From Turnera subulata (taxonomy: Eukaryota > Streptophyta > Magnoliopsida > Malpighiales > Passifloraceae): a stretch of DNA of 64,000 bases. The stretch lies in NCBI GenBank assembly GCA_028386065.3, contig JAKUCV010002736.1:121150-185149 (forward strand). Reading direction: 5' to 3'. Positions 23,498 to 47,862 of this stretch are shown one piece after another. The notes beneath the pieces were generated by a model, which did not search any database, had not been told where the DNA came from, and worked only from the letters and a program-made list of their open reading frames with translations. Within the stretch, counting starts at the first letter, position 1, and each line of letters starts with the position of its first letter. The translations under genes and the position numbers were made by a program.

Positions 23498-23880
23498 TGT
23501 AACAGTCCAGGTAAAAATTTCATTTTTATCGGGACTGTTTAAGTTAATGTACAGTAATTTACCAATGATTTTTAATCTTGGGTAATTAAATTATGGTAAA
23601 TTGAATATTGGATTCCGAAACCGAGCCTTGTCCCACGCTCGGGATTTTTCTGCAGATTTTACGGACCAAAGTTGGGATTTTTCCGGGTCCGGGAATCTTC
23701 GGAAAAAGCCGGGATTATTCTCGAATTATCGGACCAGAAATAAGATAAGTGGGTATACCGGATATTTTCTAGTCCAGGTGGGTCACACTTCACATGCAGC
23801 ATAGTAACTGCATAATTGCAGTTCAATTATTCAGCCGCCAACTCCTATTAAGCTTGTGACTTATCAATAATTTTGCTGTC

Positions 23881-23887
23881 TATATAA
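23881..23887 (+). promoter_or_regulatory. TATA box of E3 LTR
   Basis: TATATAA about 385 bp into the LTR; repeated at 36231-36237 in the 3' LTR. It implies a short U3 and a very long transcribed leader (over 2 kb). Confidence 0.6.
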
Positions 23888-24378
23888 CTATTTTTCTTCT
23901 GCCTTCCTAGTGCACTTCATCACCTTCACCATCAGCATCTTCTCTTCCTTCCCTGCGAAAACAAAAACAACAAAAACCCATTTCCTACAAAATCGTTTGA
24001 ACCAGAAAAGAAAGAAAAAAAAAATACAACACGCCACCACCTAAGCTGCGTCGTTTTGACCAGTAACCCCACCTTCCCTTCTCTTCTTCTTCTTCTTCAC
24101 GGCAGCACCACTACCGAAGCCACCACACCAACACCTCTCCTCTCTCCTTCCTTTTTCCTTCTCTTTTCCCTCCTCCACCCCGAGTTGTCGCCTTCGCCTT
24201 GCCGCCGAGGAGCCGTCGCCGAGCCTGCAGATCCGACGCCGAGGAGCTCGCGTCTTTCCCCTCGTCGCGACATGCCGCCGCCGTGTTGTTTCCACCTGCA
24301 GCTCGTCGCCCAGCGTTCCGCCGTGTAGCCGCCGCCTCGTTGCTCGCCCGTCCGACGCGCCGTCATCTGCAACCCATC

Positions 24379-24387
24379 AAGGTGAGC
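24379..24387 (+). other. Candidate splice donor in E3 leader
   Basis: AAG|GTGAGC fits the plant donor consensus. A candidate acceptor (ttctcatatag, AG at 31173-31174) lies 6 bp before the gag ATG at 31181. Splicing would remove the hairpin array and most of the leader. E4 has a comparable strong donor at 40573. No transcript data are available here. Confidence 0.4.
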
Positions 24388-25482
24388 AACCCGTGGGTGT
24401 TGTGACGGGTCCGACCCAGATAGAGGGCCGCGGGTCGGGTGACCCCAGGGTAAATGGGTTTCGATTATGGGTTGGTGTTATGTTGGGCTTGGGCTGAGTT
24501 TCGATGGGCTTGGGCTGTGCGCTTATGTTGGGTATTGGGCTGGGAAGTGGCTGGGCTGATGGTATGTGGGCTGAACAGTACCATTTGGCCCAGTCAGTTT
24601 TAAAAAAGAGAGAGATAGAAAGGAAATAAAATCTGGAAAAAAAATATATATGAAGAAGAGGAAAATTAATTTTGGAAAAATATTATATGGAATTAAATAG
24701 AGGGAAAATATAATTGGGGAATTAATGGGGAAATATAAATTTAGGGGAAGTATGTGGTATATAGAAAATAATTTTGGGAACATATATAAGGTAAGTAATA
24801 ATTTGTAGAAATAGTATTTTGGAAAGAACATACTTAAGAAATAATTATGGAAAGGGTATTATCAAAGTATAATACCGGTATAGTACCCGGGTATAGGAAA
24901 AAGTATAGAAGGGTATTTTTGACACTTGAAATAAATGGTGAATGATGATAATAATGGAAATCAATCCGGGAGAGTAACCGAGCCGAGTTTATATTTAATT
25001 TACGGTATACAGTATTAGCATGGCATTTGCATACCATCTTATGTGTGCATATTATTTGATTGACTTAGGAGTTGATAACGAGCAATTTGCTGAGGAACCG
25101 GACTTGGAACTTGCTGGACAATTCCATAATTGATATCGGCTAAGGTGAGGATGGATAACCCTTGTTATGTTGCCTGTAATACTTTGTGTGCTTTGTTGTT
25201 CGATTGAACTGCTGAATTGTTGATTGTTTGCTGATTGACTGTTGTGGTTATTATTGTTGCTTTTGGACTATGATATTGATTCTGTGGATATTATGCTGAG
25301 ATTGATGTTGAACTATTGACTGTGGAAATTGTGGAAAAGAATTTGGAATTGGAATTGGAAATGATTGAGATGTTGGTAAAATTGTCATGTGGAAGTAGTG
25401 GTACGACCCGATGGTTTGATAATTAATTTTGGGATACTATGGTCAGTTACTTGGTTTGATTGGCCCGTCATGCCTGTGGTTA

Positions 25483-25673
25483 GGGTATACCAAATACCCA
25501 GTGGCTCGGATATGCCGAATATCCGCGGTGGCTCGGATATGCCGAATATCCACAGAGGCTCAGATATGCCGAATATCTGGTTGGCATGACGTTGCCTGAG
25601 GTTGGGGTATACCGAATACCCAGTGGCTCGGATATGCCGAATATCAGCGGTGGCTCGGATATGCCGAATATCC
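25483..25673 (+). repeat. Array of 17-bp hairpins in E3 5' LTR
   Basis: Seven units with 6-bp arms and a 5-nt loop. GGATAT/ATATCC (loop gccga) occurs at 25508, 25535 and 25657, and with one mismatch at 25630. AGATAT/ATATCT occurs at 25562. GGGTAT/ATACCC occurs at 25483 and 25605 with loops accaa and accga. Arm changes stay complementary. The array lies in the transcribed leader. Its counterpart in the 3' LTR is partly replaced by the complementary segment 37825-37971. Confidence 0.9.
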
Positions 25674-25900
25674 GGTTGATCTGATATATGGATTGGTTCT
25701 TGATCTAGTATCCGGAATTAATTGATTACCAGGTACGACCCTAGCTTGTCCAGTGACGGGGGCCCGGTAGATAAAATTGCTATTAATAATTAAGCATTCT
25801 TTTGGCCTTGGTTCAGTTGTTGAGATATGTTGTTGCTTGTCTGTGATTGCTTTTAAGTATTACGGTTGCTTGCATATCACTGTTTATCCTTCGTCGGTGA

Positions 25901-26115
25901 CACTACTAATTTCCAAGCCGTTTCTTACGGCACTTTCTTACGGAAACCATCCGAAAGCAAATTGGAAGAGCTTTCTTACCGGTTTCTTACGGATTACTTA
26001 CGGAAGGGGAGAGATGTGATTTCTTTCGGATTTCTTACGGTTTAAATCCGTAAGAAGATTCCGAGCTCCACTATTGGGTTTCCTTACGGACATTGTTCGT
26101 AAGGAAGCGATAAGA
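25901..26115. repeat. Left subterminal repeats of the CACTA element
   Basis: At least six copies of TTTCTTACGG or CTTACGG in both orientations within about 200 bp. In CACTA elements such subterminal repeats bind the element's own transposase accessory protein. The right-end cluster is at about 30315-30610. Confidence 0.8.
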
Positions 26116-27205
26116 AAAGGAAAAAAGGTACTCCCAGGCTTAAACGATGTCGTCTCTTTGTCCTTAGTCCAAAAAAAATATATACATAATATATAATTAT
26201 TCCTCACCCGACGACTCTCTCCCCTCTTCTTCCTCAATTACTTTTACAAATCCCTAAATCTTCATTTCCTTCACCTCTGCCACCATCAATTCATTTCCTT
26301 CACCTCCTCTCCCTCCCGCCTCCTCAATCTCACAGCCAACGGCGTCACCTCCTCCTCCTTCTCCCTCTTGGTCAACGGCGTCGAGCTGGTCTTGCCCCCT
26401 CTCTTCCACTTCACTTCCCCTGCTCCGTCTACTGCCTCCGCCGCAGCCTGGCAGTGCCCAAGAAACAGCCGCATGCTAGTACCGGCTAAGCTGACCACCG
26501 CGTTTGAAGAAAGAAACCGCACGGGTGTAGTGTTCACTTGTTGCTCTCGTGGTGTGTGTGGTTTGTTTACTATTTTGCCAGTAGGGAAATTTGGTAAGCT
26601 GGGGTTTTAATTGAAAAGCCTGGGATGATAGGTCCAAAGAGGGATTCCATGATCTGTATGTTGTTTAACCTGGCCTGTCCAAGTATCTCCACACATACCG
26701 CAAAACCTTTACCACAAAATCTGCTACTATTTATACTTTACGTATCTCTAGTCATTTCAATTTCTCATTGTTTTGGCTACTAGTAGAGCAGAGATTCCGG
26801 AATGTACGAGTACGTTTCTATGTTGTGAGTTGTGACTAATTCTATGTTGGAGCTGGAAACATTAAGAACACAATTGTGTGATTGCTTACATGAATAATTT
26901 CATTTGCTCACTAATGAACTTCATCATGGCTGCCTTTTTGCTTTTTCTATTGCCTTTCCAAGTATTTTTGTAGTTTCAGTTCTTGATAAATTGGTCTGCT
27001 CGGTTCATCCAGGTTAGGCATCAAATGCTAGATGACAAAATCTTTAGCAAGCAAATGCTAGATAACAAATGCAATCTATACTATGCCATTAAAGTTCAAT
27101 TGGAACTCCTGGCTGTCCATTTTGCTGCTCAGCGCAATTATCTTATGGGCTCATTACTCATCAGCTGAACATTATTTCTTCTTCTCTTTTTTTTTTTTTT
27201 TGCAG

Positions 27206-27319
27206 AGGGAAAAGAAGATTTGCAGGATCTAAATGGTATTTTTGTGTATAATGTTGCTGAAAGAGAGTATCTAGACCGGCCAACAACTAGGCTTATTAAA
27301 CATTTTGAACAGATAAAGG
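27206..27319 (+). pseudogene. Captured exon of unrecognised gene in CACTA
   Basis: An open stretch between a good acceptor (poly-T then tgcag) and donor GTATGT. It reads GKEDLQDLNGIFVYNVAE..., continuing with YLDRPTTRLIKHF. Composition is that of a real protein exon and it has no stop, but I do not recognise the family. It lies on the plus strand, like the other two captured exons. Confidence 0.55.
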
Positions 27320-28020
27320 GTATGTATTGGGGAAACATTTTGGTTTATGTGTTGGAGTAGGCTGGATTTCTAGTTGTAAGTTTAGTCTTCCTTTCTTTAC
27401 TGATTGTTCTTCCATGCAAAATTTCAAAAATAGCATATCTGTTTTATGTATTCTAACCCCACACCCCTACCCCAAAGGCAGGGCAGTGAATTAGGCTTTT
27501 GAATTTCTAGACTTTCATTGAAGCTGTGTTTCAAATTTTGCTCCAATTGTGGATACCAATTTTAATTGGGACTAACAGTTTTCTGGTGCAGGGAACACTT
27601 CCAAAAGCCAGGTCTCTTTTCTTATTCTCCGTCGTTGTCGTTGGCGGCCAGGTCTCTTTCCTTTTTCTCTACTCTGTTTTAGTTCATTTATGTGCTTTTC
27701 TTTGAGTTATAGAAGCGAAAAAAATGGCTGTTCTTTCTCTTACTGGAGATTTTTGCATGTTTCTTTTGATTTTAGGTTTTCTTACTTAAAATGTGTGTAT
27801 ATGCTCTGTTTTGGTTCGTTTTGTGCTTTTTTTAGTAATAGAAGTGGAAAAGTGGGGGGATCTTCATATCGTTCTTTCGATTTCAAGTTTCTACTGAAAA
27901 TGTGTATATATACTCGGCTTAATATCCATTTTGAGCTAACAAATAAGATTGTTTCTGTTTGGCCAAACCTAATTCTACGTAATTTTTTTATCATTAGCTC
28001 TTTTTTTTGTGTGGTTTCAG

Positions 28021-28131
28021 CATCTGGAGTCTGTAATTAGAGCCTGCGTACCAGTAATCACATCTTTAATAAATAAAAGCATTGAAGAACTTGAAGCAGA
28101 GTTGAACCTCCTTGGCAGACCTATTGCAATT
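28021..28131 (+). pseudogene. Captured dynamin-related protein (DRP1-like) exon fragment
   Basis: After acceptor gtggtttcag it reads HLESVIRACVPVITSLINKS, continuing with IEELEAELNLLGRPIAI. This matches the stalk region just after the GTPase domain of plant DRP1-type dynamins, in which LINKS and a LGRP-like word are conserved. The expected donor is not clear, so the exon end is approximate. Without the GTPase domain or neighbouring exons it cannot be functional. The assignment rests on remembered family sequence, not on a search. Confidence 0.75.
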
Positions 28132-28195
28132 GCTTGCATTACATATTATGTGCAGTTTCTCCCTTTTCTTCCATGATGGGTGTTCTTCTTTGCAG

Positions 28196-28277
28196 GTGCA
28201 GGAGATTGTTCTCTCAGCAAACATAGGATGTGCCCTGTGCCAACAAAGAGTGGCTGATATAATGTCAAGAATGAGCG
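28196..28277 (+). pseudogene. Captured heavy-metal-associated (HMA) domain exon fragment
   Basis: Between acceptor tttgcag and donor GTAAGA it reads VQEIVLSANIGCALCQQRVA followed by DIMSRMS. The GCxxC pair after a beta-strand-like IVLSAN and before a helix matches the first half of an HMA fold, which in plants binds copper or other soft metals in chaperones and HIPP-type proteins. It is a single exon carried by the CACTA element. It lies about 65 bp after the dynamin-like fragment, so two host genes were joined inside the transposon. Confidence 0.7.
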
Positions 28278-31064
28278 GTAAGATATCTTAGAAATGCTCA
28301 TGTTCAACGTTCATTGTGTTGCACAGTGGTATTTATTTTGGATATTATTATATGCTGTAAGAACAATTGTCCTTTTAACATTTAACAATCTTAAACTGTC
28401 ATTTGTTCCCTGTAGCCCTTAATTTTTCCATGTGTTGGATGATTAGGATTGCTCAGAAATCCATGTAGGGTAACTTGCATGGATAATGTGTTGTTTTGCT
28501 GTTACTGGTCCCAAGCTGGGATCTCTAGTTGCTGATGATTTGGACAGTACTGGATATTGTTTACTTCCTTCACCTGGTTCAGAATGTGTTGGCTTTCAAT
28601 TTTGAACGTGTTGTGCTGCCTTTTTCTCCTCTCTAAAGCCATGTAAGCATCTTTAATAAATAAAAAACAAGGGGCTTATGTCTGTTTTTTTTTTTTTGCT
28701 ATGGATGAAAAGTCTAGAAAAATTATGACATGCAGGACTCATTCACCAGAGATGTAGTTTGGAATTAAATTTTTTTTGGGACTATGTGAATGCAAGTTGA
28801 TCTTTGGAAATTTGGAATTCATTGCGTCCACGCTGATAGCATCATAGTCAATTGTCAATAGCATTTGATATAATATGAGCTCACAAACTACCAGGTCATT
28901 GTGCTCATTCATTTTTTTCACAACTCATGCTTTATTTTGATGGTCTTAATTGCTTGTGCTGCAGGGGTTCCTTACCAATACCTATCACAAATTACCAGCC
29001 CATTGTGCTGATTTTCTTCTGCAGAATGATGGGAAGCATTCTCGTTCTATGCATTCTATAGATCTCTTCTACAAACTATTAATCTTCCATCTAGTTTTTC
29101 TTTCCTTTTGTCGAAGGTATTTGTGCATTATTCATGAAAGTAGTGGATCCATTTTCGTAAATCTCTACTACATTCAGTATTGACATATTAGACTGATGCA
29201 TCCTAGCATAGGCATCTAACAGCTTTAGCTCTAGAGTCTAGACCCTTTAGAATTAGTTTGTTTCCACTATCTATAAATATGCGTCCAATCTTGTATAGTG
29301 GACATCATTACCACTTCCAACTTCTAACGGGATGCTCTTACATAAACAAGAAAAAAAAAACCATTCCTGTTATTCAGTTTTTGGGAATAATAGGTGGCAT
29401 GAAACAGATAGGATTACCATTCACTTGCCTTTCTACCTTCTCATTTTTGTTTATACTTGCATTGCTATGGTTGTAGGTTCTCACAATAATGTCAGCTGTT
29501 GCAAAGGATCTTATAACTGGTTAAACCATGCAGAATACTTCAACAACTGATCAACAATACAGGTATTTTGCCTTGCCCTTTTTTACTAATTGCACTTTGA
29601 TTCGTGAGGTTTTAAGAGTTTGAAAATCACAAAATCTTGTGGTGTTGTTTATGAGAAGATTATCCCATTTACGTCTTGTGCAATGGCACTTGTAGCTGCA
29701 CTAATTGATGACCAATAATGTGTTACATTCCTATGTTTTGATGTCTTGAAACTATCTGTTTTCCATCTACTTCTTATATTGCTGATTGTTGGGGATTTTC
29801 CCTTTGTGGCCGAGTCGAATCAAAGTTTTAGCATTCTTAATGCAGCATGGATTACTACATGCATACCCATTCTAGCAATTCATACAGCAGAAGTTGCACT
29901 GTTGGCTTTTGAGTACGGAAGAAATCTGGTTTGTGAATTTGCTTAATCGTAACCCAAATATCAAGACAACTTGTACTCCTTTTTATTTGTAGATCAAATA
30001 CTCCTACAACGACCATTTTAGTCTTTTGTTAGAACTAGGAAGTCTTTTCTGCTGATTTTTTTTCTATTGTAATTCATGTATTTATGCAAGTTTTTAATTG
30101 GAAACATTATTCGAGGTGTACCAATAGTTATGGATTGTGTTTTTTCCCTTACATGTATAGAGCAACCATTATAAATTAATCAAAGTACGAGCACTTTTTG
30201 TAAATGATTGTTATTTCGATTAATTCTTGATAAATAATATTAGACTAGACTTTAATTGGTACAAAGTAAACTGACCAATGATACAAGGTAGACACGCGAG
30301 TATGAGCTCCACAACTTCGTTTCTTACGGCTTTCTTACGGCTCTTTCTGTAAGAAAGAGATAAATCTACGAAATTAAGGCGACAATTCGGTGGGCCCCAC
30401 TAGAGATTTACTTACGGCTTTCTTACGGCCGAAACGTAAGGAAGATGTAAGGAATGTTTTCTTACGGCTTACTTACGGATTTCTTACGAGCTCTAGGTTT
30501 CTTTCCAAATTTTGCTTACGGACAGCTCCGGTAAGTAAACCGTAAGAACGCCGTAAGAAACGTTGTTTTCTTACGGATTTCTTACGTCTTTCTTACAAAC
30601 TGGGCCTTAAGAAAAGGCTTGGAAATTAGTAGTGTGAGCACTTCGGACTCACCCCTCGCCTACGGGGTTTCATCCCGTAGGTTAAGTTGTTTCCGTAGTT
30701 CAGGTACGATGTTCGGTGGCTGCTGCTTTCTTCTCCACCTGACTCCGGATCCATACCTCCGTTGCATGTGCATAAGTCTTCCGCTGCTATTCTATTACTT
30801 ATGATGCTGTACTACAATTCCGCTGCTGTGTGATATATATTGCTGTACTGCTGATTTCCTGTGATATGTATATTACTGATACTATCTGCTGCTGCTGAGA
30901 GCACTGTGTATGGATTGAATAATGGTCCCCGAGTGTGGGTGACAGTTGTATTGATAGTTGCTATTGTTTAGTATTTGCACGTTGTACTGTCTGCTCTATC
31001 ATTATGAATAGTTTCGGCACGTGTTTACTGTGTTACGGTAAATACGGGTCGGGGCGCTTCAGTT

Positions 31065-31180: not shown

Positions 31181-32257
31181 ATGGATCCGGTTGGAGGGAA
31201 TCAGCATGCTGGAGTTCACCTGGATGACGACCAAGTATCGGTGGATCAACCGCAGCAAGTTGCGGGAGGTCCGGAACACTCTGCGAATGTTCCTTTGGGA
31301 GACCCTGCGCAGATGTTGAACGTGGTGACTCAGATTTTGCAAAGGCAAGATGCCAAAGATGCCCGTATCGCAGTTGTGGAAGCTCGGGAACAGGAGAACC
31401 AGGGACCTGTTGAGGATCCAGTGTATACGAAGCTGGAAAAGCTTGGGGCTGAGGTTTTCACTGGTGTCACTACACCACAGGATGCTGACCGTTGGCTCAG
31501 ACAGATGAACCGGGTTATGTTGAGGCTGACATGCAGGAATGATAGGTGGGCCAGATATGCCGCCGCCATGTTTCGAGGAGATGCTGTTGATTGGTGGGAG
31601 TCTACCACCAGGGACATGCCGACACCTATCATTATACCATGGAATCAGTTCATGGAGATGTTCCGAAGGAAGTTTGTCTCTGAGGCATACCAGGATCAGC
31701 TGAGGCGAGAGTTTCTGGGATTGCAACAGGGACCATACCAGACGGTCAATGAGTATGAGATCAAGTTCAACCGTTTGTCCATCTATGCCAGTGAGTTTGT
31801 GGCTACTCCGGATGCCAGATGTAAACGTTTCTGGGATGGTCTTCGATCTGGCATCCAGACAGTCATGGGGTGCAAGGTCTATGAGACTTACCAGGACATG
31901 TTGACGGGTGCTTTAAGAGCTGAGATCATCTGGCTGAATAATGAGAAGGAGCAACAGGAGATCCGCAAGAGACAAGCTGCACAGAGTTCTGGGGGACAGA
32001 ACAAGAGGTTCCAGACACCTGCTAACCGATCCGGGTATGGACAGGGCCGCTCTATGCCCATGAGTCAAGGACGTGGGTAGAACAACAACACCTACAACCG
32101 AGGCAGTTCTTGGACTCAGTCTGGAGGGACTTCATCTGGGGATACTCGCCCGAGATTTCTTATGTCTCAGGTGAGGTGCTTTGAGTGTAACGAAGTTGGG
32201 CACTACCGATATGCTTGTCCCAAGTTGGGAAGATCTGGAGGTACAGCACCTACCTAG
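31181..32257 (+). pseudogene. Gag of E3, interrupted by two TAG codons
   Basis: The start MDPVGGNQHAGVHLDDDQ opens 299 codons. The core capsid region has the Ty3/gypsy retrotransposon gag pattern (DADRWLRQMNRVMLRL; YAAAMFRGDAVDWWEST). The frame meets TAG at 32078 (after ...SQGRG), continues through a CCHC zinc knuckle CFECNEVGHYRYACP, then meets a second TAG at 32255. Downstream pol (from 32261) is in the same frame, so the ancestor had one gag-pol ORF. Both stops are one C-to-T step from CAG (Gln), a CHG context prone to methylation-driven change. Gag would form the particle that packages the RNA. As it stands, the protein ends before the RNA-binding knuckle. Confidence 0.9.
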
Positions 32258-32260
32258 ACA

Positions 32261-35200
32261 GTGCAAGCTTCAGTTGCTAGTGTTCCTAGTGGTTCTGGAG
32301 TTGGCCGAGGTCGAGGACGTGGAGCTGTTCCTGCTAGGACCCAGTCGGACACGAATCAGAGTGCAGCTGTGCCGAGAGCATTTGTTATCACCGTTGAGGA
32401 GGATCCGGAGAATGCTGATGTCATAGCAGGTATTTTTACAGTTTTTGGTAGTACTGCTTATACTTTGATAGACCCTGGTGCTACGCATTCATTTATTGCG
32501 CAAAGTTTTGCAATACTACATAACTGTACGGGTGAGAGTTTAGTTTGTCCAATGAGAGTTAGGTTACCTGCGGGTATAGTAGTCAGATTAACCCATATGT
32601 GCAGAGATGTTTCGCTTTCATATGATAGCGAGATTTTTCTTGCACGGTTGGTCGTGATGAATATGGGAGGTTTTGATATCATATTGGGGATGGACTGGTT
32701 GTCCAAGTACAGTGCTATGGTGAACTGTCGAACCAAGGAAGTGTTGTTGACTTCCGAGGGCGGACATAAGATTTTGTTGACAGGTATTGGGAGAGCTGCT
32801 ACCACATATAGTATCTCTGCTAATCAGGATGTTGGGATACAGCCATTGGGTCCAGATGCTTTGTTGACCCATGCCAAGGGTGAAGAAGTTCAGACTCCGG
32901 TTTTGGGAGACATCATGGTTGTGAGAGAGTTTCCAGATGTGTTTCCGGAGGATTTGCCAGGATTGCCACCTGACAGAGAAGTTGAGTACACCATCGATTT
33001 GATGCCAGGAGTGACACCTATCTCGATGGCACCATATCGGATGGCACCAACAGAACTCCAGGAGTTGAAGAAACAGTTGGATGAGCTGTTAGAGAAAGGT
33101 TTCATCAGACCTAGTATTTCACCTTGGGGATCACCAGTCCTCTTTGTGAAAAAGAAGGATGGTAGTTTGCGCATGTGTGTGGACTACCGACAGCTGAACA
33201 AGGTGACAGTGAAGAATAAGTATCCGCTTCCCAGGATTGATGATCTTTTTGATCAGTTACAGGGAGCTACTGTATTTTCTAAGATTGATCTTCGATCTGG
33301 TTACCATCAGGTCAAGATTGCAGAGGAGGACATACCGAAGACAGCTTTCCGCACTCGGTATGGTCACTTTGAGATCACAGTGGTTCCTTTTGGCTTGACC
33401 AATGCACCTACAGTTTTCATGTGTTTGATGCACTTGGTCTTGAACGAGTTCTTGGATAAGTTTGTTGTAGTCTTCATCGACGATATACTGATATACTCCA
33501 AGAACCGAGAAGAACATGAAGAGCACCTGAGGATAGTGCTTCAGAGGTTGCGAGAGAAAGAGTTGTATGCTAAGTTTAGCAAGTGCGAGTTCTGGCTTGA
33601 AGAAGTTGCATTCCTTGGACATGTTGTATCCGGGGATGGAATTAAGGTTGATCCTGCTAAAGTAAAAGCCGTTCTGGAGTGGGAGCCGCCTAAGACGGTA
33701 CCAGAAGTCAGGAGTTTTCTTGGCCTTGCAGGATATTATCGAAGATTCATCGAGGGTTTCTCTTTGATAGCTAGTCCTATGACCAAGCTGTTAAAGAAAG
33801 ACCAAGTCTTTGTATGGAGTGATGCTTGCCAGAAGAGTTTTGATGAACTGAAGAAGAAGCTGACAACAGCACCAGTCTTGACAGTGCCTAAGCCAGGAGT
33901 GGAGTATGTGCTGTTCTGCGATGTTTCAGGTCTTGGTTTGGGAGCTGTTCTGATGCAAGAAGGCCGAGTGATAGTCTATGCTTCGAGACAGTTGAGGCCA
34001 CATGAGAAGAACTATCCGACACATGACTTGGAGATGGCCGCAGTGATTCTTGCTTTGAAGATCTGGCGACATTATCTGTTTGGAGAGAGATGCCGGATTT
34101 TCACAGATCACAAGAGTCTCAAGTATATCATGACTCAGAAGGAACTTAACCTGCGACAAAGACGTTGGATTGAGTTGCTGAATGATTATGATTGTACTAT
34201 TGAGTATCATCCTGGAAAAGCTAATGTTGTAGCAGATGCTTTGAGCCTGAGACAACCAGAAGATGCTTCCACGACTTACTCGATGTCCTCACTCATCGAG
34301 TTAAGGAAGATGGGAGTTGATTTGTCAGTTGATGAGACAGGAGCTTTGTTGACACATATTGAAGTCAAGTCTAACCTGAGAGGCTGGATTGTTGAGTTAC
34401 AAGATGGAGATCCCGACCTGATCAAGCTGAAGGAAGCAGTCCGTAGTGGAAAGGAAGATAAGTTCCACATAGCCGAGGATGGTGCACTGATGCTAGGAAA
34501 GCGCCTATGTGTACCCAGTGTTGGTGACCTGCGCAGTCAGATTCTAGAAGAAGGACATATGACACCGTATGCTATGCATCCCCGGAGCACCAAGATGTAT
34601 CAGGATTTGAGGAGTCATTTCTGGTGGCCACGTATGAAGAAGGATGTAGCTGAGTATGTGGCTAAGTGTATCACTTGCCAGCAAGTGAAAGCTGAGCATC
34701 AGGCTCCAGTTGGGAAAATGAGATCTCTGTCAGTGCCAGAGTGGAAGTGGGAGATGATTACCATGGATTTTGTGGTCGGATTACCGTTGACCCGGAGACA
34801 GCATGATGCCATCTGGGTTATCGTTGATCGACTTACAAAATCAGCCCATTTTCTTCCCATTCGACAGACAGACACCTTGGATAAGTTGGCGAAGCAATAT
34901 GTTGCAGAGATTGTGAGGCTACATGGAATTCCTAAGTCCATAGTCTCAGACAGAGACCCGAGATTCACATCACGGTTCTGGAAGAGTCTGCAAACAGCTT
35001 TGGGGACGAAGCTGAGTTTTAGTACTGCATTCCATCCTCAGACAAATGGGCAGTCGGAGAGGACTATCCAGACACTAGAAGATATGCTAAGGGCTTGTGC
35101 TCTTAACTTCAGTGGGAGTTGGGATCAGTATTTGCCTTTAGCGGAGTTTGCCTATAACAACAGTTATCATTCCAGTATTGGCATGCCTCCGTTTGAAGCT

Positions 35201-35812
35201 CTTTACGGAAGGAAGTGCCGAAGTCCAGTTTGCTGGGATGAAGAAGGTCTTCGTTTGATCGTTGGTCCGGATTTGGTTAAGCAGACTGTTGACAAGATTC
35301 AGACAGTCAAGCAGAGTATGAGAGCAGCACAGGACCGACAGAAGAGCTATGCCGATAAGCACCGCCGGGAGATGGAGTACCAAGTGGAAGAACGAGTTTT
35401 CCTCCGAGTTGCACCTTGGAAGGGTGTAATCAGATTCGGGAAAAGAGGGAAGCTGAGTCCCAGGTACATTGGACCGTATGAGATAGTGGAAAGGATTGGA
35501 TCCCTGGCGTACAGATTATCTTTGCCAGAGGAGTTGTCACGGATTCATGATGTGTTCCATGTTTCCATGTTGAGGAGGTACAGATCAGACCCGAGCCATG
35601 TGGTTACTATAGTAGATGTTGAGGTCGCAGAGGATCTTACATATACGGAAATGCCAGAACAGATCCTTGCCCGAGAAGTCAGACAATTGAGGAACAGAGT
35701 TATTCCGATGGTAAAGGTTAAGTGGAGCAAGCACTCTGCGAATGAGTCCACATGGGAAGTTGAGGAGCATATGCGTTCCCAGTATCCGCACTTGTTCACA
35801 GCTTCGGAGTGA
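32261..35812 (+). CDS. Pol polyprotein of E3 (protease, RT, RNase H, integrase, chromodomain)
   Basis: 1183 open codons in frame with gag; the ATG at 32261 is only the first after the second TAG and not a natural start. Visible in order: aspartic protease [10 protein letters not shown] (about residue 70); reverse transcriptase with [35 protein letters not shown] and the catalytic [11 protein letters not shown] (about 405); RNase H (about 545-670); integrase zinc finger ending CITCQQVK and the core with [17 protein letters not shown] and NGQSERT (about 834, 895, 931), giving the D,D,E triad; and a C-terminal chromodomain-like region (about 1125-1180) with [20 protein letters not shown]. Chromodomains steer chromovirus integration to heterochromatin. 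Apparently intact; production requires readthrough of the upstream stops. Confidence 0.95.
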
Positions 35813-35847: not shown

Positions 35848-38676
35848 TGTAACAACCCAGGTAAAAATTTCATTTTTACCGGGACTGTTTAGGTTAATGT
35901 ACAGTAATTTACCAATGATTTTTAATCTTGGGTAATTAAATTATGGTAAATTGAATATTGGATTCCAAAACCGAGCCTTGTCCCACGCTTGGGATTTTTC
36001 TGCAGATTTTACGGACCAAAGTTAGGATTTTTCCGGGTCCGGGAATCTTCGGAAAAAGTCGGGATTATTCTCGAATTATCGGACCAGAAATAAGATAAGT
36101 GGGTATACCGGATATTTTCTAGTCCAGGTGGGTCACACTTCACATGCAGCATAGTAACTGCATAATTGCAGTTCAATTATTCAGCCGCCAACTCCTATTA
36201 AGCTTGTGACTTATCAATAATTTTGCTGTCTATATAACTATTTTTCTTCTGCCTTCCTAGTGCACTTCATCACCTTCACCATCAGCATCTTCTCTTCCTT
36301 CCCTGCGAAAACAAAAACAACAAAAACCCATTTCCTACAAAATCGTTTGAACCAGAAAAGAAAGAAAAAAAAAAATACAACACGCCACCACCTAAGCTGC
36401 GTCGTTTTGACCAGCAACCCCACCTTCCCTTCTCTTCTTCTTCTTCTTCACGGCAGCACCACTACCGAAGCCACCACACCAACACCTCTCCTCTCTCCTT
36501 CCTTTTTCCTTCTCTTTTCCCTCCTCCACCCCGAGTTGTCGCCTTCGCCTTGCCGCCGAGGAGCCGTCACCGAGCCTGCAGATCCAACGCCGAGGAGCTC
36601 ACGTCTTTCCCCTCGTCGCGACATGCCGCCGCCGTGTTGTTTCCACCTGCAGCTCGTCGCCCAGCGTTCCGCCGTGTAGCCGCCGCCTCGTTGCTCGCCC
36701 GTCCGACGCGCCGTCATCTGCAACCCATCAAGGTGAGCAACCCGTGGGTGTTGTGACGGGTCCGACCCGGATAGAGGGCCGCGGGTCGGGTGACCCCAAG
36801 GTAAATGGGTTTCGATTATGGGTTGGTGTTATGTTGGGCTTGGGCTGAGTTTCGATGGGCTTGGGCTGTGCGCTTATGTTGGGTATTGGGCTGGGAAGTG
36901 GCTGGGCTGATGGTATGTGGGCTGAACAGTACCATTTGGCCCAGTCAGTTTTAAAAAAGAGAGAGATAGAAAGGAAATAAAATCTGGAAAAAAAAATATA
37001 TATGAAGAAGAGGAAAATTAATTTTGGAAAAATATTATATGGAATTAAATAGAGGGAAAATATAATTGTGGAATTAATGGGGAAATATAAATTTAGGGGA
37101 AGTATGTGGTATATGGAAAATAATTTTGGGAACATATATAAGGTAAGTAATAATTTGTAGAAATAGTATTTTGGAAAGTACATACTTAAGAAATAATTAT
37201 GGAAAGGGTATTATCAAAGTATAATACCGGTATAGTACCCGGGTATAGGAAAAAGTATAGAAGGGTATTTTTGACACTTGAAATAAATGGTGGATGATGA
37301 TAATAATGGAAATCAATCCGGGAGAGTAACCGAGCCGAGTTTATATTTAATTTACGGTATACAGTATTAGCATGGCATTTGCATACCATCTTATGTGTGC
37401 ATATTATTTGATTGACTTAGGAGTTGATAACGAGCAATTTCCTGAGGAACCGGACTTGGAACTTGCTGGACAATTCCATAATTGATATCGGCTAAGGTGA
37501 GGATGGATAACCCTTGTTATGTTGCCTGTAATACTTTGTGTGCTTTGTTGTTCGATTGAACTGCTGAATTGTTGATTGTTTGCTGATTGACTGTTGTGGT
37601 TATTATTGTTGCTTTTGGACTATGATATTGATTCTGTGGATATTATGCTGAGATTGATGTTGAACTATTGACTGTGGAAATTGTGGAAAAGAATTTGGAA
37701 TTGGAATTGGAAATGATTGAGATGTTGGTAAAATTGTCATGTGGAAGTAGTGGTACGACCCGATGGTTTGATAATTAATTTTGGGATACTATGGTCGGTT
37801 ACTTGGTTTGATTGGCCCGTCATGGGACACCAATCCCATATGGTTTATGGGTCACCGAGCCTATACGGCTTATAGGCGCCACCGAGCCTATACGGCTTAT
37901 AGGCGTCTCCGAGTCTATACGGCTTATAGACCAACCGTACTGCAGCGGACTCCAACCCCATATGGCTTATGCCAGTGGCTCGGATATGCCGAATATCCGC
38001 GGTGGCTCGGATATGCCGAATATTTGGTTGATCTGATATGTGGATTGGTTCTTGACCTAGTATCCAGAATTAATTGATTACCAGGTACGACCCTAGCTTG
38101 TCCAGTGACGGGGGCCCGGAAGATAAAATTGGTATTAATAATTAAGCATTCTTTTGGCCTTGGCTTAGTTGTTGAGATATGTTGTTGCTTGTCTGTGATT
38201 GCTTTTAAGTATTACGGTTGCTTGCATATCACTGTTTATCCTTCGTCGGTGAGCACTTTGGACTCACCCCTCGCCTGCGGGGTTTCATCCCGTAGGTTAA
38301 GTTGTTTCCGTAGTTCAGGTATGATGTTCGGTGGCTGCTGCTTTCTTCTCCACCTGACTCCGGATCCATACCTCCGTTGCATGTGCATAAGTCTTCCGCT
38401 GCTATTCTATTACTTATGATGCTGTACTACAATTCCACTGCTGTGTGATATATATTGCTGTACTGCTGATTTCCTGTGATATGTATATTACTGATACTAT
38501 CTGCTGCTGCTGAGAGCACTGTGTATGGATTAAATAATGGTCTCCGAGTGTGGGTGACAGTTGTATTGATAGTTGCTATTGTTTAGTATTTGCACGTTGT
38601 ACTCTCTGCTCTATCATTATGAATAGTTTCGGCACGTGTTTACTGTGTTACGGTAAATACGGGTCGGGACGCTTCA
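35848..38676 (+). repeat. 3' LTR of E3
   Basis: 2829 bp, TGTAACAACCC...CTTCA, matching the 5' LTR with few differences except at 37825-37971. It preserves the empty site of the CACTA insertion. TATA box at 36231. Right-hand target duplication TGTAT follows. Confidence 0.95.
37825..37971 (+). other. 147-bp segment that is the same-direction complement of the 5' LTR
   Basis: Read left to right, every base pairs with the base at the position 12352 bp upstream: 25473 cctgtggttagggtatac against 37825 ggacaccaatcccatatg, and so on to 25619/37971. I compared all 147 positions: 145 are exact complements. The exceptions are 25552/37904 and 25593/37945; undone, they would be ordinary transitions. Flanks are normal LTR homology (cccgtcatg before, ccagtggctcgg after). 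It is not a reverse complement, so a simple inversion does not explain it. The 5' LTR version is the native one, because its GGATAT/ATATCC hairpins continue outside the segment in both LTRs. Confidence 0.97.
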
Positions 38677-39668
38677 TGTATATAATTCGTTTCCAAATTA
38701 TACATTTTTATCAATTTTTTCTATTTTTTCATATAGATCTGAAAAATAAATAAAAATTATTAAAATATAAATTAGAATACAAATAAGAAAAATAAATAAA
38801 ATAAACTATTTAATAATAATATAAATAATAACTAATTTTTTAAACTTAAACATGCATTGTTGGCCCCTAAAACAAAAAACATATTAAACAACCGAAGAAA
38901 AAGTTCAAAAAAAAAAACTAATAAAAAATAAAAAATATAAGAGAGTAATTTTTAAAACATAGATGAGTAAATGAATAAAAAATATTATCATAAAAAATTA
39001 AAATAGAAAAATATAATATAGTTTAGAAAAATAAATTCTAACCTAATAAATAATAATATAAAAAATAATTAGTTTTGCAAAGTTAAACGTGGATCATTGA
39101 GCCAAAAAACAACAAAAATATTAAACAACAGAAGTAAAAATCAAAAGTATTAATGAAGGATAACAAAAAGTATAAAAAACTTAAAGAGAATAATTTTAAA
39201 GAAATATAAATCAGGAAAATAAATAAAAAAATATTATTATGCAGAAAAAAATTAAATTAGAAAATAGAATATAAATAAGGAAAATAAATAAAATAAATTG
39301 TTTAATAATCATATAAATCATACTTAATTTTTTATATTTAAACATATATCAGTGAGTCTCAAAACAAAGAAATATATTAAACGATAAAAAAATCTAAAAT
39401 AATTAATTAATAATAAACAAAAAATAAAAAAATAAGAGGGTAATTTATAAAAATAAAAATAAGGAAAAAAATAAAAAAATATTATTACGAAGAGAGAACA
39501 TTAAAATAGAAAATGAAGAAAAATTAGAAATGAAATAAAATAAAATACTAAATAGTAATATAAATAATAATAAATTTTGTAAATTTATACCTGCATCAAT
39601 AATTGATCGGGCCTACACAATTGACCCCTAAAACAAAACATATTAAACATATAATAAAAAATTGTAAG
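38677..39668. repeat. AT-rich tandem array (about 240-bp units), left part
   Basis: Degenerate units are marked by a recurring phrase (taaacatg...ttggccc...aaaacaaa...atattaaac) near 38845, 39080, 39335 and 39570. Between the phrases are long A/T runs. It continues on the far side of E4 at 47868. No genes. Confidence 0.7.
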
Positions 39669-39992
39669 TGTAACAGCCCGGATAAAAATTTGGATTTTTA
39701 CCGGGACTATGAAAGTCTTTTTACAGTAATTTACCGAAAAATTAATCTTGGGTAGTTAATTCAAGGTAAATCGGGCATCGTTTTGCGAAATCGAGGGTTT
39801 TCCCGCGCTCGGGATTCTTCCGTGGATTTTTCGGACCTGAGTTAGTATTTTTCGGGTCCCGGAATCTTCGGAAAATCACACCGGAAAATAACTAAGGGGG
39901 TATCAGTTATTTTCTGGTCCGGACCGGACTCGCTTCATAATGCAGACAAGCTGCATTATTGAATGATCACACGTTGTACAGTATTTCACGGT

Positions 39993-40000
39993 TTATAAAA
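39993..40000 (+). promoter_or_regulatory. TATA box of E4 LTR
   Basis: TTATAAAA just before the GA-rich block; repeated at 45262-45269 in the 3' LTR. Confidence 0.55.
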
Positions 40001-40569
40001 GAAGAAGAAAGCAGGAGAAGAAAGGAAGAGGAGAGGAAGAAAGGAGAGGGAAAAAAAAAGAGAGAAAAAGAAAAAAAAAAAGAAAAAGAAAAGAAGAGAA
40101 AAAAAAAGAGAGAAGAAAAGAAAAAAAAAAAGAAAATCGGAAGAAGAAAAACAGAGAGGAAAAAGAGAAAAAAAAAAGAAAGAAAAAAAAAGAAAGAAAA
40201 TGAAAGAAAAATAGAAATAAAATAGAAAAAAGAAAGAAAAAAAACCGGGTGTGAACAGTTCGTCACCCTCCTCTCCCTCGGGTTACTGTTCACGGGAAGA
40301 CGATCGGCGCCGTCGTTCGCTGCACCGCCGCCACCATCGAGCTCGCCGTGTCGACGCGACCTCAACCCCGTCGCCCCCGTCGTCTTCCGCCGCCTGACGG
40401 GCCGTGACGCGCCGTTGACCCGGCGGACGACCCGCGGATCCGTCTTCCTCCGCTCCTGCAACTGCTCCTGCCGTCGCCGCGCCTCCTTTTCGCCGCCCAT
40501 GGAATCGCCTCGATGTCGTCGACCCCGCGCTCGCTTCCTTCGTGTTGTCGTGCCGCCGTCGCCGTTCCT

Positions 40570-40579
40570 AAGGTAAGAA
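40570..40579 (+). other. Candidate splice donor in E4 leader
   Basis: AAG|GTAAGAA is a strong plant donor, conserved at 45855-45864 in the 3' LTR. As in E3 it follows a C-rich block and precedes the AT-rich zone and hairpins. An acceptor near the gag stub (42688) is not obvious. Confidence 0.4.
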
Positions 40580-41610
40580 TCCGACTCATCTGGGCGGGTC
40601 GCGGCCGGGTCGCGCCTCCCATGGGTGCTGGGTTGCAGGGTTGGGTTGTTTTATTTTTTAAAAAAAATATATATAAATATCTGTATATATATAATTAATC
40701 TGGTATTTAATTTAAAAAAAAATATATATTCACTTTGAGAAAAATATAGAAAGTATGATTTATGGTTTTAGGGAAAAATGTATGTATATATATACCTTGA
40801 TAATTATGTTTTGTTTTGAAAAAAATGTTATTATATATATTTAGGAAAAAGATAAATATTCTATATATATTTTCTGGAAATTATAAATACGTTATTATTT
40901 TTCTGGAAAATTATGGTAATTAACTTTGGAAAATATATATATGGTACACATGATTTATATTTCTAAAATATATAATTATTTTGATAATGTAATTGTTTGG
41001 AAAAGTATTTTATGTTTGGAAATATATATGTGTATTTATAAATTCGTATTTATTTTCAGAAAATAAGTTTATGTGATTATACTTTCTGGAAATGGAGTTT
41101 TCTAAAGATAATAATACTTGGAAATTATATTTTGTAAAGTATAATAATTTTTATAGAAATATTATGGAAAATATATACATATGTTATAATTTCCAGAAAA
41201 ATTATGGTAATTATTATTTTGGAAAAAGTATATTATTTTATGAAAATGTTTTGATTTAATAGTTTTGGAAATATATTTTTGTAACCCTATATGCATACGA
41301 TATATTTTCGGAAAAAGGGATAATTATGGTAAAAGATCTATTATTTCCTATACTTGGCCCTACCCAATAAAGCGTCATTACCGTAGTATCATATGGCTAA
41401 TACACGTAAATACACCCGTACAACAAAGCAACACATCCAAAATTATAGCCCGTCAAAGGGCTCCTCGGCCGAACCCTGGCCTGTAACAGAAGCCTCAACT
41501 CATTAGCCGGTTCCACTCCTACCTAAAGGAAGTTTACGTGCCTGTATTACTCGGTTATTGTGTTGATGATTATTGCACTATTGGATGTTGCATTTGTTGT
41601 GGTTTGGTTC

Positions 41611-41989
41611 GGGATGTTTATCCCAGTGTCCTAATTGTTTTTGGGATGTTTATCCCCGTGCTTTGAGTTTTGGATGTCTATTTCTGTGTCTTTTGGTATA
41701 AGTATTATGGAATAAATAATGAATTGTGATAAGGATGTCGATCCTCGGTTTGGATGGGATGTCTATCCTGGTATTTTGGTTAGGGATGTTGATCCCTGTG
41801 ATTTGATTTTGATGATGATAATATAATTGTCACGTGGTAAGTAGTGGTACGACTCGATGGTTTAAGACTGTTTTGTGGTGGCCATGACCTGGGTTACTTG
41901 TGATAAGCATGTCTATGCTTGGGATGTCTATCCCGTGATTATATTTGAGATGTCTATCCCTGGGTTCTTATTTTTGGGATGTCGATCCC
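41611..41989 (+). repeat. Array of 14-bp hairpins in E4 5' LTR
   Basis: About ten units with 5-bp arms and a 4-nt gtNN loop. GGGAT/ATCCC occurs at 41611, 41643, 41783, 41921 and 41976. AGGAT/ATCCT is at 41732 and AAGCAT/ATGCTT at 41905. Degenerate units are near 41672, 41756 and 41946. The AGGAT and AAGCAT variants show paired changes on both arms. Confidence 0.9.
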
Positions 41990-42574
41990 TGGGTTCTCTT
42001 GGATTTGGTCTGACACCCTAAATATGTTGATAACCAGGTCTGACCCCTAGCTTATCCGTGACGGGGCCCGGAAAGATAAAATTGGAAATTGGATTTTGTT
42101 TAAGTGTTTTGGTCTTGGAACAGTCTTGGGTCTTGTCTTTTAATTTGGCTGTTATGCTTGTTTTTGACCATGAGTAATTATAGTGTTGCATATTGATTGT
42201 CTATCCTTCGTCGGTGAGCACTTCGGACTCACCCCTCACCTGCGGGCTTTCATCCCGTAGGATGAGTTATTTGTGGTACAGGTTTGATGCATTCCAGACA
42301 GGCTACGGCGTTATCCCTTGGACAGGACTTGGATCCATAGTTTGCATCTATGTCGCATACAGTGTCTTTGTGAGTTATTAAGTCCTCCGCTGTGCATTAT
42401 ATTGCTATTGTTGGGCCATTGGGCCGGTTATGATGTTATTGTTGTTTTTATTTTGGGCTATTGAGCCCGAGTTTCTGTTGTATACACTGTATGCTGGGCT
42501 TGGTTTGGTTGGGTCGTCACAGTTCCGGCACGTGTTTACTGTGTACGATAAACAAGGGTCGGGGCGTTTCATTT

Positions 42575-42590
42575 TGGAAGCGGAGCGGGC
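42575..42590 (+). other. Primer binding site of E4
   Basis: TGGAAGCGGAGCGGGC just after the LTR, aligned with the E3 site TGGTAGCGGAGCAGGC. Confidence 0.65.
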
Positions 42591-42687
42591 GTTAGGTCTT
42601 GTTGGGCAGTCCTTGTGTGTTTGTTGTTCTTATTTGCATAGTTCGCTCCATCTGTTTATTATTTTATATCATTTTAGTTAGTGCATT

Positions 42688-42777
42688 ATGGATCCAGTCA
42701 AGGGACACCAGCTGTCGCAGAACATACACATAAGAGGTAATGATGCCATAAATAAGCAAAAATATAAATATTATTAA
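42688..42777 (+). pseudogene. Vestigial gag start in E4
   Basis: A 29-codon frame starting MDPVKGHQLSQN, matching the E3 gag start MDPVGGNQHAG in the same place after the primer site. It soon runs into AT-rich sequence and stops at TAA (42775). The rest of gag-pol has been replaced. This supports descent of E4 from an autonomous chromovirus. The start codon may be kept for translation or packaging. Confidence 0.7.
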
Positions 42778-42844
42778 TATTGCTAATATTAATATTACAA
42801 ACATTAAAATTACATTATATTATAAAGAAAATACATTCATCTTC

Positions 42845-44949: not shown

Positions 44950-45946
44950 TGTAACAGCCCGGGTAAAAATTTGGATTTTTACCGGGACTGTGAAAGTCTT
45001 TTTATAGTGATTTACCGAAAGAATTAATCTTGGGTAATTAATTCAAGGTAAATCGAGCGTCGTTTTGTGAAACCGAGGGTTTTCCCGCGCTCGGGATTCT
45101 TCCGTGGATTTTTCGGACCTGAGTTAGTATTTTTCGGGTCCCAGAATCTTCAGAAAATAACTAAGGGGGTATCAGTTATTTTCTGGTTCGGACCGGACTC
45201 GCTTCATAATGCAGACAAGCTGCATTATTGAATGATCACACGTTGTACAGTATTTCACGGTTTATAAAAGAAGAAGAAAGCAGGAGAAGAAAGGAAGAGG
45301 AGAGGAAGAAAGGAGAGGGAAAAAAAGAGAGGAAAAGAAAAAAAAAGAGAAAGAAAAGAAGAGAGAAAAAAAAAAGAGAAGAAAAGAAAAAAAAAAAAAA
45401 GAATATCGGAAGAAGAAAAACAGAGAGGAAAAAAAGAAAAAAAAGAAAGAAAAAAATAGAAACAGAAAAAAAAGAAAGAAAATGAAAGAAAAATAAAAAG
45501 AAAATAGAAAAAAGAAAGAAAAAAAAAACCCAGGAGTGAACAGTTCGTCATCCTCCTCTCCCTCGGGTTACTGTTCACGGGAAGACGTTCGGCGCCGCCG
45601 TTCGCTGCACCGCCGCCACCATCGAGCTCGCCGTGTCGACGCGACCTCAACCACGTCGCCCCCGTCGTCTTCCGCCGCCTGACGGGCCGTGTCTCGCCGT
45701 TGACCCGGCGGACGACCCGCAGATCCGTCTTCCTCCGCTCCTGCAACTGCTCCTGCCGTCGCCGCGCCTCCTTTTCGCCGCCCATGGAGTCGCCTCGATG
45801 TCGTCGACCCCGCGCTCACTTCCTTCGCGTTGTCGCGCAGCCGCCGCCGTTCCTAAGGTAAGAATCCGACTCATCTGGGCGGGTCGGGCCGGGTCGCGCC
45901 TCCCATGGGTACTGGGTTGCCGGGTTGGGTTGTTTTATTTTTTAAA

Positions 45947-45983
<37 letters not shown>

Positions 45984-47862
45984 ATTATTCTGGTATTTAA
46001 TTTTTTAAAAAAATATATATTCACTTTGAGAAAAATATAGAAAGTATGATTTATGGTTTTAGGGAAAAATGTATGTATATATATACCTTAATAATTATGT
46101 TTTATTTTGAAAAAAATGTTATTATATATATTTAGGAAAAAGATAAATATTCTATATATATTTTCTGGAAATTATAAATACATTATTATTTTTCTGGAAA
46201 ATTATGGTAATTAACTTTGAAAAATATATATATGGTACACATGATTTATATTTCTGAAATATATAATTATTTTGATAATGTAATTGTTTGGAAAAGTATT
46301 TTATGTTTGGAAATATATATGTGTATTTATAAATTCGTATTTATTTTTGAAAAATAAGTTTATGTGATTATACTTTCTGGTAATGGAGTTTTCTGAAGAT
46401 AATAATACTTGGAAATTATATTTTGGAAAGTATAATAATTTTTATAGAAATATTATGGAAAATATATACATATGTTATAATTTACAGAAAAATTATGGTA
46501 ATTTTTATTTTGGAGAAAGTATATTATTTTATGAAAATATTTTGATTTAATAGTTTTGGAAATATATTTTTGTAACCTTATATGCATACAATATATTTTC
46601 GGAAAAAGGGATAATTATGGTAAAAAATCTATTATTTCCTATACTTGGCCCTACCCAATAAAGCGTCATTACCGTAGTATCATATGGCTAATACACGTAA
46701 ATACACCCGTACAACAAAGCAACACATCCAAAATTATAGCCCGTCAAAGGGCTCCTCGGCCGAACCCTGGCCTGTAACAGAAGCCTCAACTCATTAGCCG
46801 GTTCCACTCCTACCTAAAGGAAGTTTATGTGCCTGTATTACTCGGTTATTGTGTTGATGATTATTGCACTATTGGTTGTTGCATTTGCTCTGGTTTGGTT
46901 CGGGATGTTTATCCCAGTGTCCTGATTGTTTTTGGGATGTTTATCCCCGTGCTTTGAGTTTTGGATGTCTATTTCTGTGTCTTTTGGTATAAGTATTATG
47001 GAATAAATAATGAATTGTGATAAGGATGTCGATCCTCGGTTTGGATGGGATGTCTATCCCAGTATTTTGGTTAGGGATGTTGATCCCTGTGATTTGATTT
47101 TGATGATGATAATATAATTATCACGTGGTAAGTAGTGGTACGACTCGATGGTTTAAGACTGTTTTGTGGTGGCCATGACCTGGGTTACTTGTGATAAGCA
47201 TGTCTATGCTTGGGATGTCTATCCCGTGATTATATTTGGGATGTCTATCCCTGGGTTCATATTTTTGGGATGTCGATCCCTGGGTTCTCTTGGATTTGGT
47301 CTGGCACCCGAAATATGTTGATAACCAGGTCTGAACCCTAGCTTATCCGTGACGGGGCCCGGAAAGATAAAATTGGAAATTGGATTTTGTTTAAGTGTTT
47401 TGGTCTTGGACCAGTCTTGGGTCTTGTCTTTTAGTTTGGCTGTTATGCTTGTTTTTGACCTTGAGTAATTATAGTGTTGCATATTGATTGTCTATCCTTC
47501 GTCGGTGAGCACTTCGGACTCACCCCTCACCTGCGGGCTTTCATCACGTAGGATGAGTTATTTGTGGTACAGGTTTGATGCAATCCAGACAGGCTGCGGC
47601 GTTATCCCTTGGACAGGACTTGGATTCATAGTTTGCATTTATGTCGCATACAGTGTCTTTGTGAGTTATTAAGTCTTCCGGTGTGCATTATATTGCTATT
47701 GTTGGGCCATTGGGCCGGTTATGATGTTATTGTTGTTTTTATTTTGGGTTATTGAGCCCGAGTTTCTGTTGTATACACTGTATGCTGGGCTTGGTTTGGT
47801 TAGGTCGTCACAGTTCCGGCACGTGTTTACTGTGTACGGTAAATACGGGTCGGGGCGTTTCA
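44950..47862 (+). repeat. 3' LTR of E4
   Basis: 2913 bp; matches 39669-42571. Differences include a 13-bp gap near 45157 relative to the 5' copy and an expanded TA microsatellite (about 45947-45985). Confidence 0.94.
46912..47281 (+). repeat. Array of 14-bp hairpins in E4 3' LTR
   Basis: Same array as 41611-41989. Two units that are imperfect in the 5' LTR (ATCCT at 41765, GAGAT at 41947) are perfect GGGAT/ATCCC here, so decay has hit the 5' copy. Confidence 0.9.

What the first reader, a model, noticed from the sequence alone, without database searches (positions are those of the whole stretch)
37825..37971. 147 bp of an LTR are complemented in place without reversal
The two LTRs of E3 are nearly identical except here, where the 3' LTR is the same-direction complement of 25473-25619 at 145 of 147 positions, with identical length and clean edges (cccgtcatg before, ccagtggctcgg after). 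Inversion would give a reverse complement, which does not fit. The hairpin arms therefore read CCTATA/TATAGG instead of GGATAT/ATATCC and still form stems. The two exceptions (25552/37904 and 25593/37945), once undone, are normal LTR transitions, so the segment was native sequence that had already diverged. Known replication, repair and recombination do not produce parallel-strand complements. An assembly, format or deliberate editing artefact is the first explanation; if real in the genome it would need a new mechanism.
Basis: seen in the sequence. Interest (0 to 1): 0.97.

Follow-up and report, generated by a model that had tools for sequence, protein, structure and literature searches.

The report
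Short complemented blocks litter genome assembly

Summary
Confirmed: window 37825-37971 is the same-direction complement of 25473-25619 at 145/147 positions, with exact edges. It is not unique. When the window's own genome could be searched (518.7 Mb), I read 17 such tracts (15 events) in 12 contigs. They lie in the LTR hairpin array, elsewhere in LTRs, and in one stretch whose window counterpart lies between two LTRs. Two more lie in this window, one in each LTR of the neighbouring element. Genome-wide, 20 flipped hairpins stand against 4,699 native ones.

No tract measures more than 200 bases, and 6 of 15 events measure 197-200. Edges mostly differ between copies. One tract starts on the first base of a solo LTR beside an unflipped target-site duplication. 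In four comparable LTR pairs the tracts hold 2 differences against 15.1 expected from flanks (P=3.6e-5). I know of no base-pairing process that gives a parallel complement. Best reading: a systematic in-silico artefact, short blocks reversed but not complemented. No reads were available, so this is inferred. If real in DNA, it would be categorically new.

The parts
37825..37971 (+). flipped tract t1 (147 bp) in the 3' LTR of E3: in-place, same-direction complement
   Evidence: 145/147 against the 5' LTR; 147/147 against a native copy in contig C5468
25473..25619 (+). native counterpart of t1 in the 5' LTR of E3
41338..41534 (+). flipped tract t10a (197 bp) in the 5' LTR of E4
   Evidence: complement of C5049:20960-21156 at 92.4% and of further copies
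46629..46825 (+). flipped tract t10b (197 bp) in the 3' LTR of E4, identical to t10a
   Evidence: 100% identical to t10a; differences between the LTRs resume just outside it
35848..38676 (+). 3' LTR of E3
23498..25900 (+). 5' LTR of E3, first part
30635..31061 (+). 5' LTR of E3, second part (begins with the TGA duplicated by the insertion)
25901..30634 (.). CACTA-type insertion splitting the 5' LTR (not part of the anomaly)
   Evidence: terminal inverted repeats and TGA duplication
31181..32080 (+). E3 gag ORF
   Evidence: Pfam Retrotrans_gag
32261..35812 (+). E3 pol ORF
   Evidence: protease, RT, RNase H, integrase and chromodomain matches
39669..42571 (+). 5' LTR of E4
   Evidence: pair at 95.3% with 44950-47862
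44950..47862 (+). 3' LTR of E4

Best explanation
The 147-bp block is one of 17 in-place complement tracts read in this assembly, and it was most likely made when assembly or finishing software reversed short blocks (at most about 200 bases) without complementing them. Shown: the blocks recur in 12 contigs; they replace native sequence in place; their edges mostly differ between copies; none measures more than 200 bases; and in the four LTR pairs that can be compared they are more alike than their flanks. Inferred: the block was held or marked apart from the rest of the contig (for example gap-filled, repeat-collapsed or lower-case bases) when the contig was turned over. A reverse-strand string that is reversed but not complemented gives exactly the complement in place; a complement table for capital letters only, applied to a sequence with lower-case blocks, would do this. 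The two LTRs of one element would receive the same block because their reads could not be told apart. Which program did it is not known.
For: (1) Recurrence in unlike places: hairpin array, plain LTR, the start of an LTR, and a stretch whose window counterpart lies between LTRs. (2) A size limit: the 15 event lengths are 90, 94, 147, 151, 152, 158, 161, 187, 190, 197, 199, 199, 199, 199, 200 (listed). (3) Differences between LTR partners inside tracts: 2 against 15.1 expected from flanks of 280-400 bp, P=3.6e-5; for the two elements with both LTRs flipped, 0 against 10.05. A flip inherited by transposition should have aged like its flanks. (4) No private change of a kind that ageing in the flipped state would leave, apart from two in C5109 that match a unit present natively in C2649. 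(5) One tract starts on the first base of a solo LTR whose duplication CCTAG is not flipped; a repeat boundary is a natural place for an assembly break. (6) Joining scars in two of these contigs: a single N between two identical 240-bp copies (C5049:19160) and a single N beside a poly-C run (C2490:99128). (7) Only A-T/C-G letter exchange without reversal fits.
Against: No raw reads and no second assembly were available. The files held have no lower case, so the lower-case idea is untested. I found no paper describing such an error (all narrow searches). Not all un-complemented tracts look pooled: E4's carries 11 private changes in 197 bases against 3 native copies, and those of C7032:25502, C5109 and E4 are no closer to other copies than their flanks are. 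Identical edges in both LTRs of C2815 and of E4 could also mean inheritance followed by gene conversion. The length limit was noticed after the fact and is only moderate against a smooth distribution (P=0.015).
Confidence: 0.83

Rival explanations
1. The tracts are real in the DNA: a process copies or exchanges stretches of up to about 200 nt with parallel polarity, in LTR repeats above all.
For: They recur in 12 contigs with exact edges. Both LTRs of two elements carry the same tract. One tract respects an LTR terminus. One paper claims parallel DNA synthesis in vitro (PMC4304224, abstract and results section read).
Against: No accepted enzymology (my knowledge). A limit at 200. Tracts in both LTRs have not aged (0 against 10.05 expected). 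No sign of CpG decay particular to the flipped state (small numbers).
Confidence: 0.06
3. Microinversion or template switching in the palindromic array.
For: The array is rich in hairpins, a setting known for inversions.
Against: 38/147 as reverse complement, chance level. No exact 10-mer from the reverse complement; the longest inverted match between the 60-bp flanks is 5 bp. Tracts also occur outside the array.
Confidence: 0.01
4. The flipped state is an old, normal variant of the LTR family, passed between copies by transposition or gene conversion.
For: Other copies carry it. The right edges of the E3 and C5049 array tracts coincide. Two elements carry it in both LTRs.
Against: Edges mostly differ from copy to copy. 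The un-complemented tract fits each subfamily's own sequence. No ageing in the flipped state. It would still need a first parallel complement.
Confidence: 0.03

Closest known systems
'Complement' (C-type) repeats as reported by REPuter in chloroplast genomes
   Same: Same letter relation: same direction, complemented (PMC5877577, passages read).
   Different: There the minimum is 30 bp with Hamming distance 3, and the passages give 0-1 such repeats per genome; here 90-200 bp, in place, between homologous copies.
Microinversions (PMC8755829, abstract read)
   Same: Short in-place change of strand relation.
   Different: Those are reverse complements of 17-33 nt flanked by inverted repeats; here there is no reversal and no such flank.
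Scaffold-orientation errors in short-read assemblies (PMC9635638, passages read)
   Same: A strand-handling fault of assembly.
   Different: There scaffolds differ in orientation; I found no description of short blocks complemented without reversal.
Parallel DNA PCR claim (PMC4304224, abstract and results section read)
   Same: Would give the same sequence relation.
   Different: In vitro, designed primers, 120-base template; no genomic tracts.
Ty3/gypsy chromovirus-type LTR retrotransposon (host of the tract)
   Same: gag, protease, RT, RNase H, integrase, chromodomain, long LTRs, 5-bp duplication.
   Different: An ordinary member as far as tested; the complement tract is no feature of the family.

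Membership tests
Microinversion | segment equals the reverse complement of the ancestral state | tested here: not met
   38/147; 0 bases covered by exact 10-mers of the reverse complement
Microinversion | flanking inverted repeats | tested here: not met
   longest inverted match between the 60-bp flanks is 5 bp
Parallel-complement (C-type) repeat | same direction, A-T and C-G exchanged | tested here: met
   145/147, best of 24 letter substitutions
Assembly artefact | recurs in unlike sequence of the same assembly | tested here: met
   17 tracts in 12 contigs
Assembly artefact | bounded by a size limit | tested here: inconclusive
   15 event lengths of 90-200, 6 of them 197-200; P=0.015 against a smooth distribution, noticed after the fact
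Assembly artefact | raw reads contradict the assembled state | not testable with these tools
   no reads are held
Capitals-only reverse-complement fault | tracts coincide with lower-case bases in turned-over components | not testable with these tools
   the files held are upper case only
Old real DNA variant | tract has aged in its flipped state like its flanks | tested here: not met
   0 differences against 10.05 expected where both LTRs are flipped; no CpG decay particular to the flipped state in 9 tracts (small numbers)
Ty3/gypsy chromovirus (E3) | protease-RT-RNase H-integrase with chromodomain | tested here: met
   (chromodomain 26.0 bits against a cut-off of 25.1; integrase core rve 28 bits, below its cut-off of 32.6)
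Ty3/gypsy chromovirus (E3) | target-site duplication and TG...CA LTR ends | tested here: met
   TGTAT on both sides; TGTAACA...GCTTCA

The most novel reading that the evidence does not exclude
Chromosomes of this likely plant contain many tracts, at most about 200 nt long, in which the two strands have exchanged bases in place: a parallel-polarity copy has replaced the original, in LTR repeats above all and at times in both LTRs of one element. That would be a new class of mutation and a new kind of DNA synthesis or strand exchange.
Probability: 0.06. Interest if true: 1.

Novelty: not a real feature. Interest (0 to 1): 0.55.

Why it matters
If it is an artefact, a genome that users take at face value holds short blocks that ordinary aligners show only as unalignable inserts. 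LTR dating, repeat consensus building, small-RNA and methylation mapping and primer design would be misled, and the same fault may sit in other assemblies from the same pipeline. Any genome can be screened in one step by aligning it to its own un-reversed complement. If it were real, it would break the rule that DNA is copied antiparallel.

Tried and rejected
Rejected: inversion and template switching. An edit of this window alone. An exact 17-mer match in a viral contig, L001, and an exact 22-mer match in another, L006: neither has further similarity to the LTR at the match. An inherited and aged flipped lineage. A file-offset explanation: the 0-based starts 37824 and 25472 are multiples of 64 but the ends are not aligned; other tracts were not tested for it.

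Led nowhere: Rfam (0 matches). Protein search with a frame crossing the tract (none of 344 candidates at E<=10). Viral contigs with the pol protein (none of 11 stretches). Bacterial genome contigs with pol (4 loci; one search found no LTR similarity in them). Native 21-mer and flipped 23-mer in viral contigs: 0 each. Searches for complemented pol and LTR pieces in the whole genome did not complete, so I cannot say whether coding parts are flipped at the same rate. In the internal regions of C2649 and C2815 the alignment to E3's ran unbroken over 4,787 columns each, so no flip was seen in those; too little to conclude from.

Full report
OBSERVATION. Window 37825-37971 and 25473-25619 are both 147 bases. 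In the same direction they agree as complements at 145 positions, as identical letters at 0, as reverse complement at 38 and as plain reverse at 37. Of all 24 letter substitutions only A-T/C-G exchange fits. The edges are exact. BLAST of the window against its own un-reversed complement gave this pair 257 bits. With the segment masked, the longest non-simple parallel-complement word in the window is 12, against 11-18 in ten Markov simulations.

HOST ELEMENT. E3 has gag, protease, RT, RNase H, integrase and chromodomain matches (the integrase core match is below its cut-off). Its LTRs are 2.8 kb (35848-38676, and a split 5' copy), and 5-bp duplications TGTAT stand at 23493-23497 and 38677-38681. 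The two LTRs therefore come from one insertion and began identical (established biology of LTR elements). A CACTA-type element (25901-30634, duplication TGA) sits in the 5' LTR. Outside the tract the LTRs differ at 38 of 2,684 aligned bases, 31 of them transitions; inside, un-complemented, at 2 of 147. Both inside changes are CpG-type transitions in native orientation.

THE KEY RESULT: IT RECURS. The window's own genome (G000, 518.7 Mb, 7,125 contigs) answered twice (35 other attempts met a busy machine). For a 401-base query across the tract, 40 of 2,303 candidates were scored: the window itself, 5 loci carrying the flipped state, and 34 places matching only outside the tract. A pattern search of the whole genome found 20 flipped hairpins CCTATAYGGYTTATAGG in 10 contigs. 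The tool's control, the pattern read backwards, equals the reverse complement of the native hairpin and was found 4,699 times. The flipped state is thus about 0.4% of these units.

TRACTS. I compared 204,915 bases, then 243,814 and 263,814 (of which 9,861 N), with their own un-reversed complement. This gave 13 tracts (11 events, counting both LTRs of one element once). The loci added four more. In contig coordinates: C2490:158974-159120 (this finding, 147); C2649:273689-273839 (151; its partner LTR is native and matches as complement throughout); C2815:77213-77364 and 84750-84901 (152, both LTRs of one element); C5109:262187-262386 (200); C4943 near 385374-385467 (94 by motif; up to 98 by BLAST); C5049:12719-12879 (161); C7032:25502-25700 (199); C7032:23180-23378 (199); C6151:34060-34250 (190 by motif; 191 by BLAST); C5049:10955-11153 (199); C2490:162487-162683 and 167778-167974 (197, both LTRs of E4, window 41338-41534 and 46629-46825); C1363 (158), C3269 (187), C3659 (90) and C3882 (199). 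That is 17 tracts, 15 events, 12 contigs. Some edges are uncertain by one to a few bases where a substitution or indel lies beside them. BLAST alignments run up to 213 columns with gaps and end effects. Eight leftover matches of 65 columns, all with C2815:89588-89651, were not classified. The sample is not random: most stretches were fetched because they hold this LTR. Tracts not selected by a flipped array at that spot are the two of C7032, that of C6151, C5049:10955 and the two of E4.

WHERE THEY LIE. Not only in hairpins: C7032 and C6151 have them in plain LTR, C3882's reaches upstream out of the array, E4's lies in another part of the LTR, and the window counterpart of C5049:10955 (43091-43274) lies between E4's LTRs. 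The C7032:23180 tract starts on the first base of a solo LTR; the duplication CCTAG just before it is not flipped and is repeated after the LTR. The E3 and C5049 array tracts share their right edge.

REAL OR NOT. Four LTR pairs allow a test. Inside the tracts the partners differ at 2 positions, both in E3; from the flanks (280-400 bp a side) 15.1 were expected (P=3.6e-5). For the two elements with both LTRs flipped it is 0 against 10.05. A flip that was old and copied by transposition should have aged with its flanks. In E4 the nearest LTR differences stand just outside the tract, at 41335 and 41537. Changes private to flipped tracts were sought against native relatives of at least 85% identity and 85% coverage: 9 of the 12 tracts known then had two or more such relatives. 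Private changes were 0 (E3), 1 and 1 (C2815), 5 (C5109), 0 (C4943), 1 (C7032:25502), 0 (C6151), 11 and 11 (E4). None is a CpG-type decay in the printed orientation except two in C5109, and these are the complement of a unit present natively in C2649, which the filter had left out. The numbers are small, so this test is weak alone. Un-complemented, E3's tract is 100% identical to the copy in C5468, whose flanks are 95% alike; C6151's is also closer to other copies than its flanks are, but those of C7032:25502, C5109 and E4 are not. The length list stops at 200, with 6 of 15 events at 197-200; against a smooth distribution of the same mean the chance of no longer tract is 0.015, noticed after the fact.

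MECHANISM (inferred). Turning a contig over means reversing and complementing. A block that is reversed but not complemented ends up as the complement in place, with the same length and exact edges: precisely what is seen. Blocks stored or marked apart from the contig would be the victims: gap fill, collapsed short repeat contigs, or lower-case bases met by a capitals-only complement table. Lying where two LTR copies cannot be told apart, starting at a repeat boundary, and a size limit all suit such blocks. Joining scars are present in two of these contigs: a single N between two identical 240-bp copies (C5049:19160) and a single N beside a poly-C run (C2490:99128). The program is unknown, and case is lost in the files held.

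LITERATURE. Searches listed no description of such an artefact that I could see; they were narrow and the library lacks most subscription papers. Read in part: PMC4304224 (abstract and results section), PMC9635638 (passages), PMC5877577 (passages), PMC8755829 (abstract). Others were seen in listings only.

VERDICT. The decisive test is raw reads.

Noticed in passing
window 25901-30634: CACTA-type DNA transposon (ends CACTACTAATTTCCAAGCC / GGCTTGGAAATTAGTAGTG, 3-bp duplication TGA) nested in the 5' LTR of E3; only one ORF of at least 90 aa inside (116 aa).
   Followed up: partly
window 39669-47862: E4: two LTRs of about 2.9 kb (95% identical) only about 2.4 kb apart, no ORF of 200 aa between them; probably a non-autonomous element.
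   Followed up: no
window 20591-23242: Two adjacent minus-strand ORFs of C1/DC1-domain proteins (382 and 488 aa), perhaps a gene pair or a split gene.
   Followed up: no
G000 C5049:19160 and C2490:99128: Single N between two identical 240-bp copies, and single N followed by a poly-C run: signs of failed overlap joining or gap filling.
   Followed up: partly
G000 C5049:2800-6660: A run of at least 3,861 N ends next to the array region of the LTR whose partner carries a flipped tract; it may be an assembly gap or a withheld stretch, not decided.
   Followed up: no
G000 C2490:159120 and C5049:12719 (LTR sense): Two tracts in different elements share the same right edge (CTTATG|CCAGTGG).
   Followed up: no
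G000 C2815:89588-89651: Parallel-complement matches of 65 columns to C7032 and C2490 copies of another repeat, left unclassified.
   Followed up: no
L002, L003, L004: Contigs filed under bacterial genomes (CAKZKU010000297.1, NZ_SWBM01000019.1, NZ_VCHY01000050.1) encode relatives of this plant-type gypsy pol at 52-63% identity; they look like contamination.
   Followed up: no
G000: Flipped hairpins are 15 forward and 5 reverse, while the native control is balanced (2339/2360); with so few tracts this may be chance.
   Followed up: no
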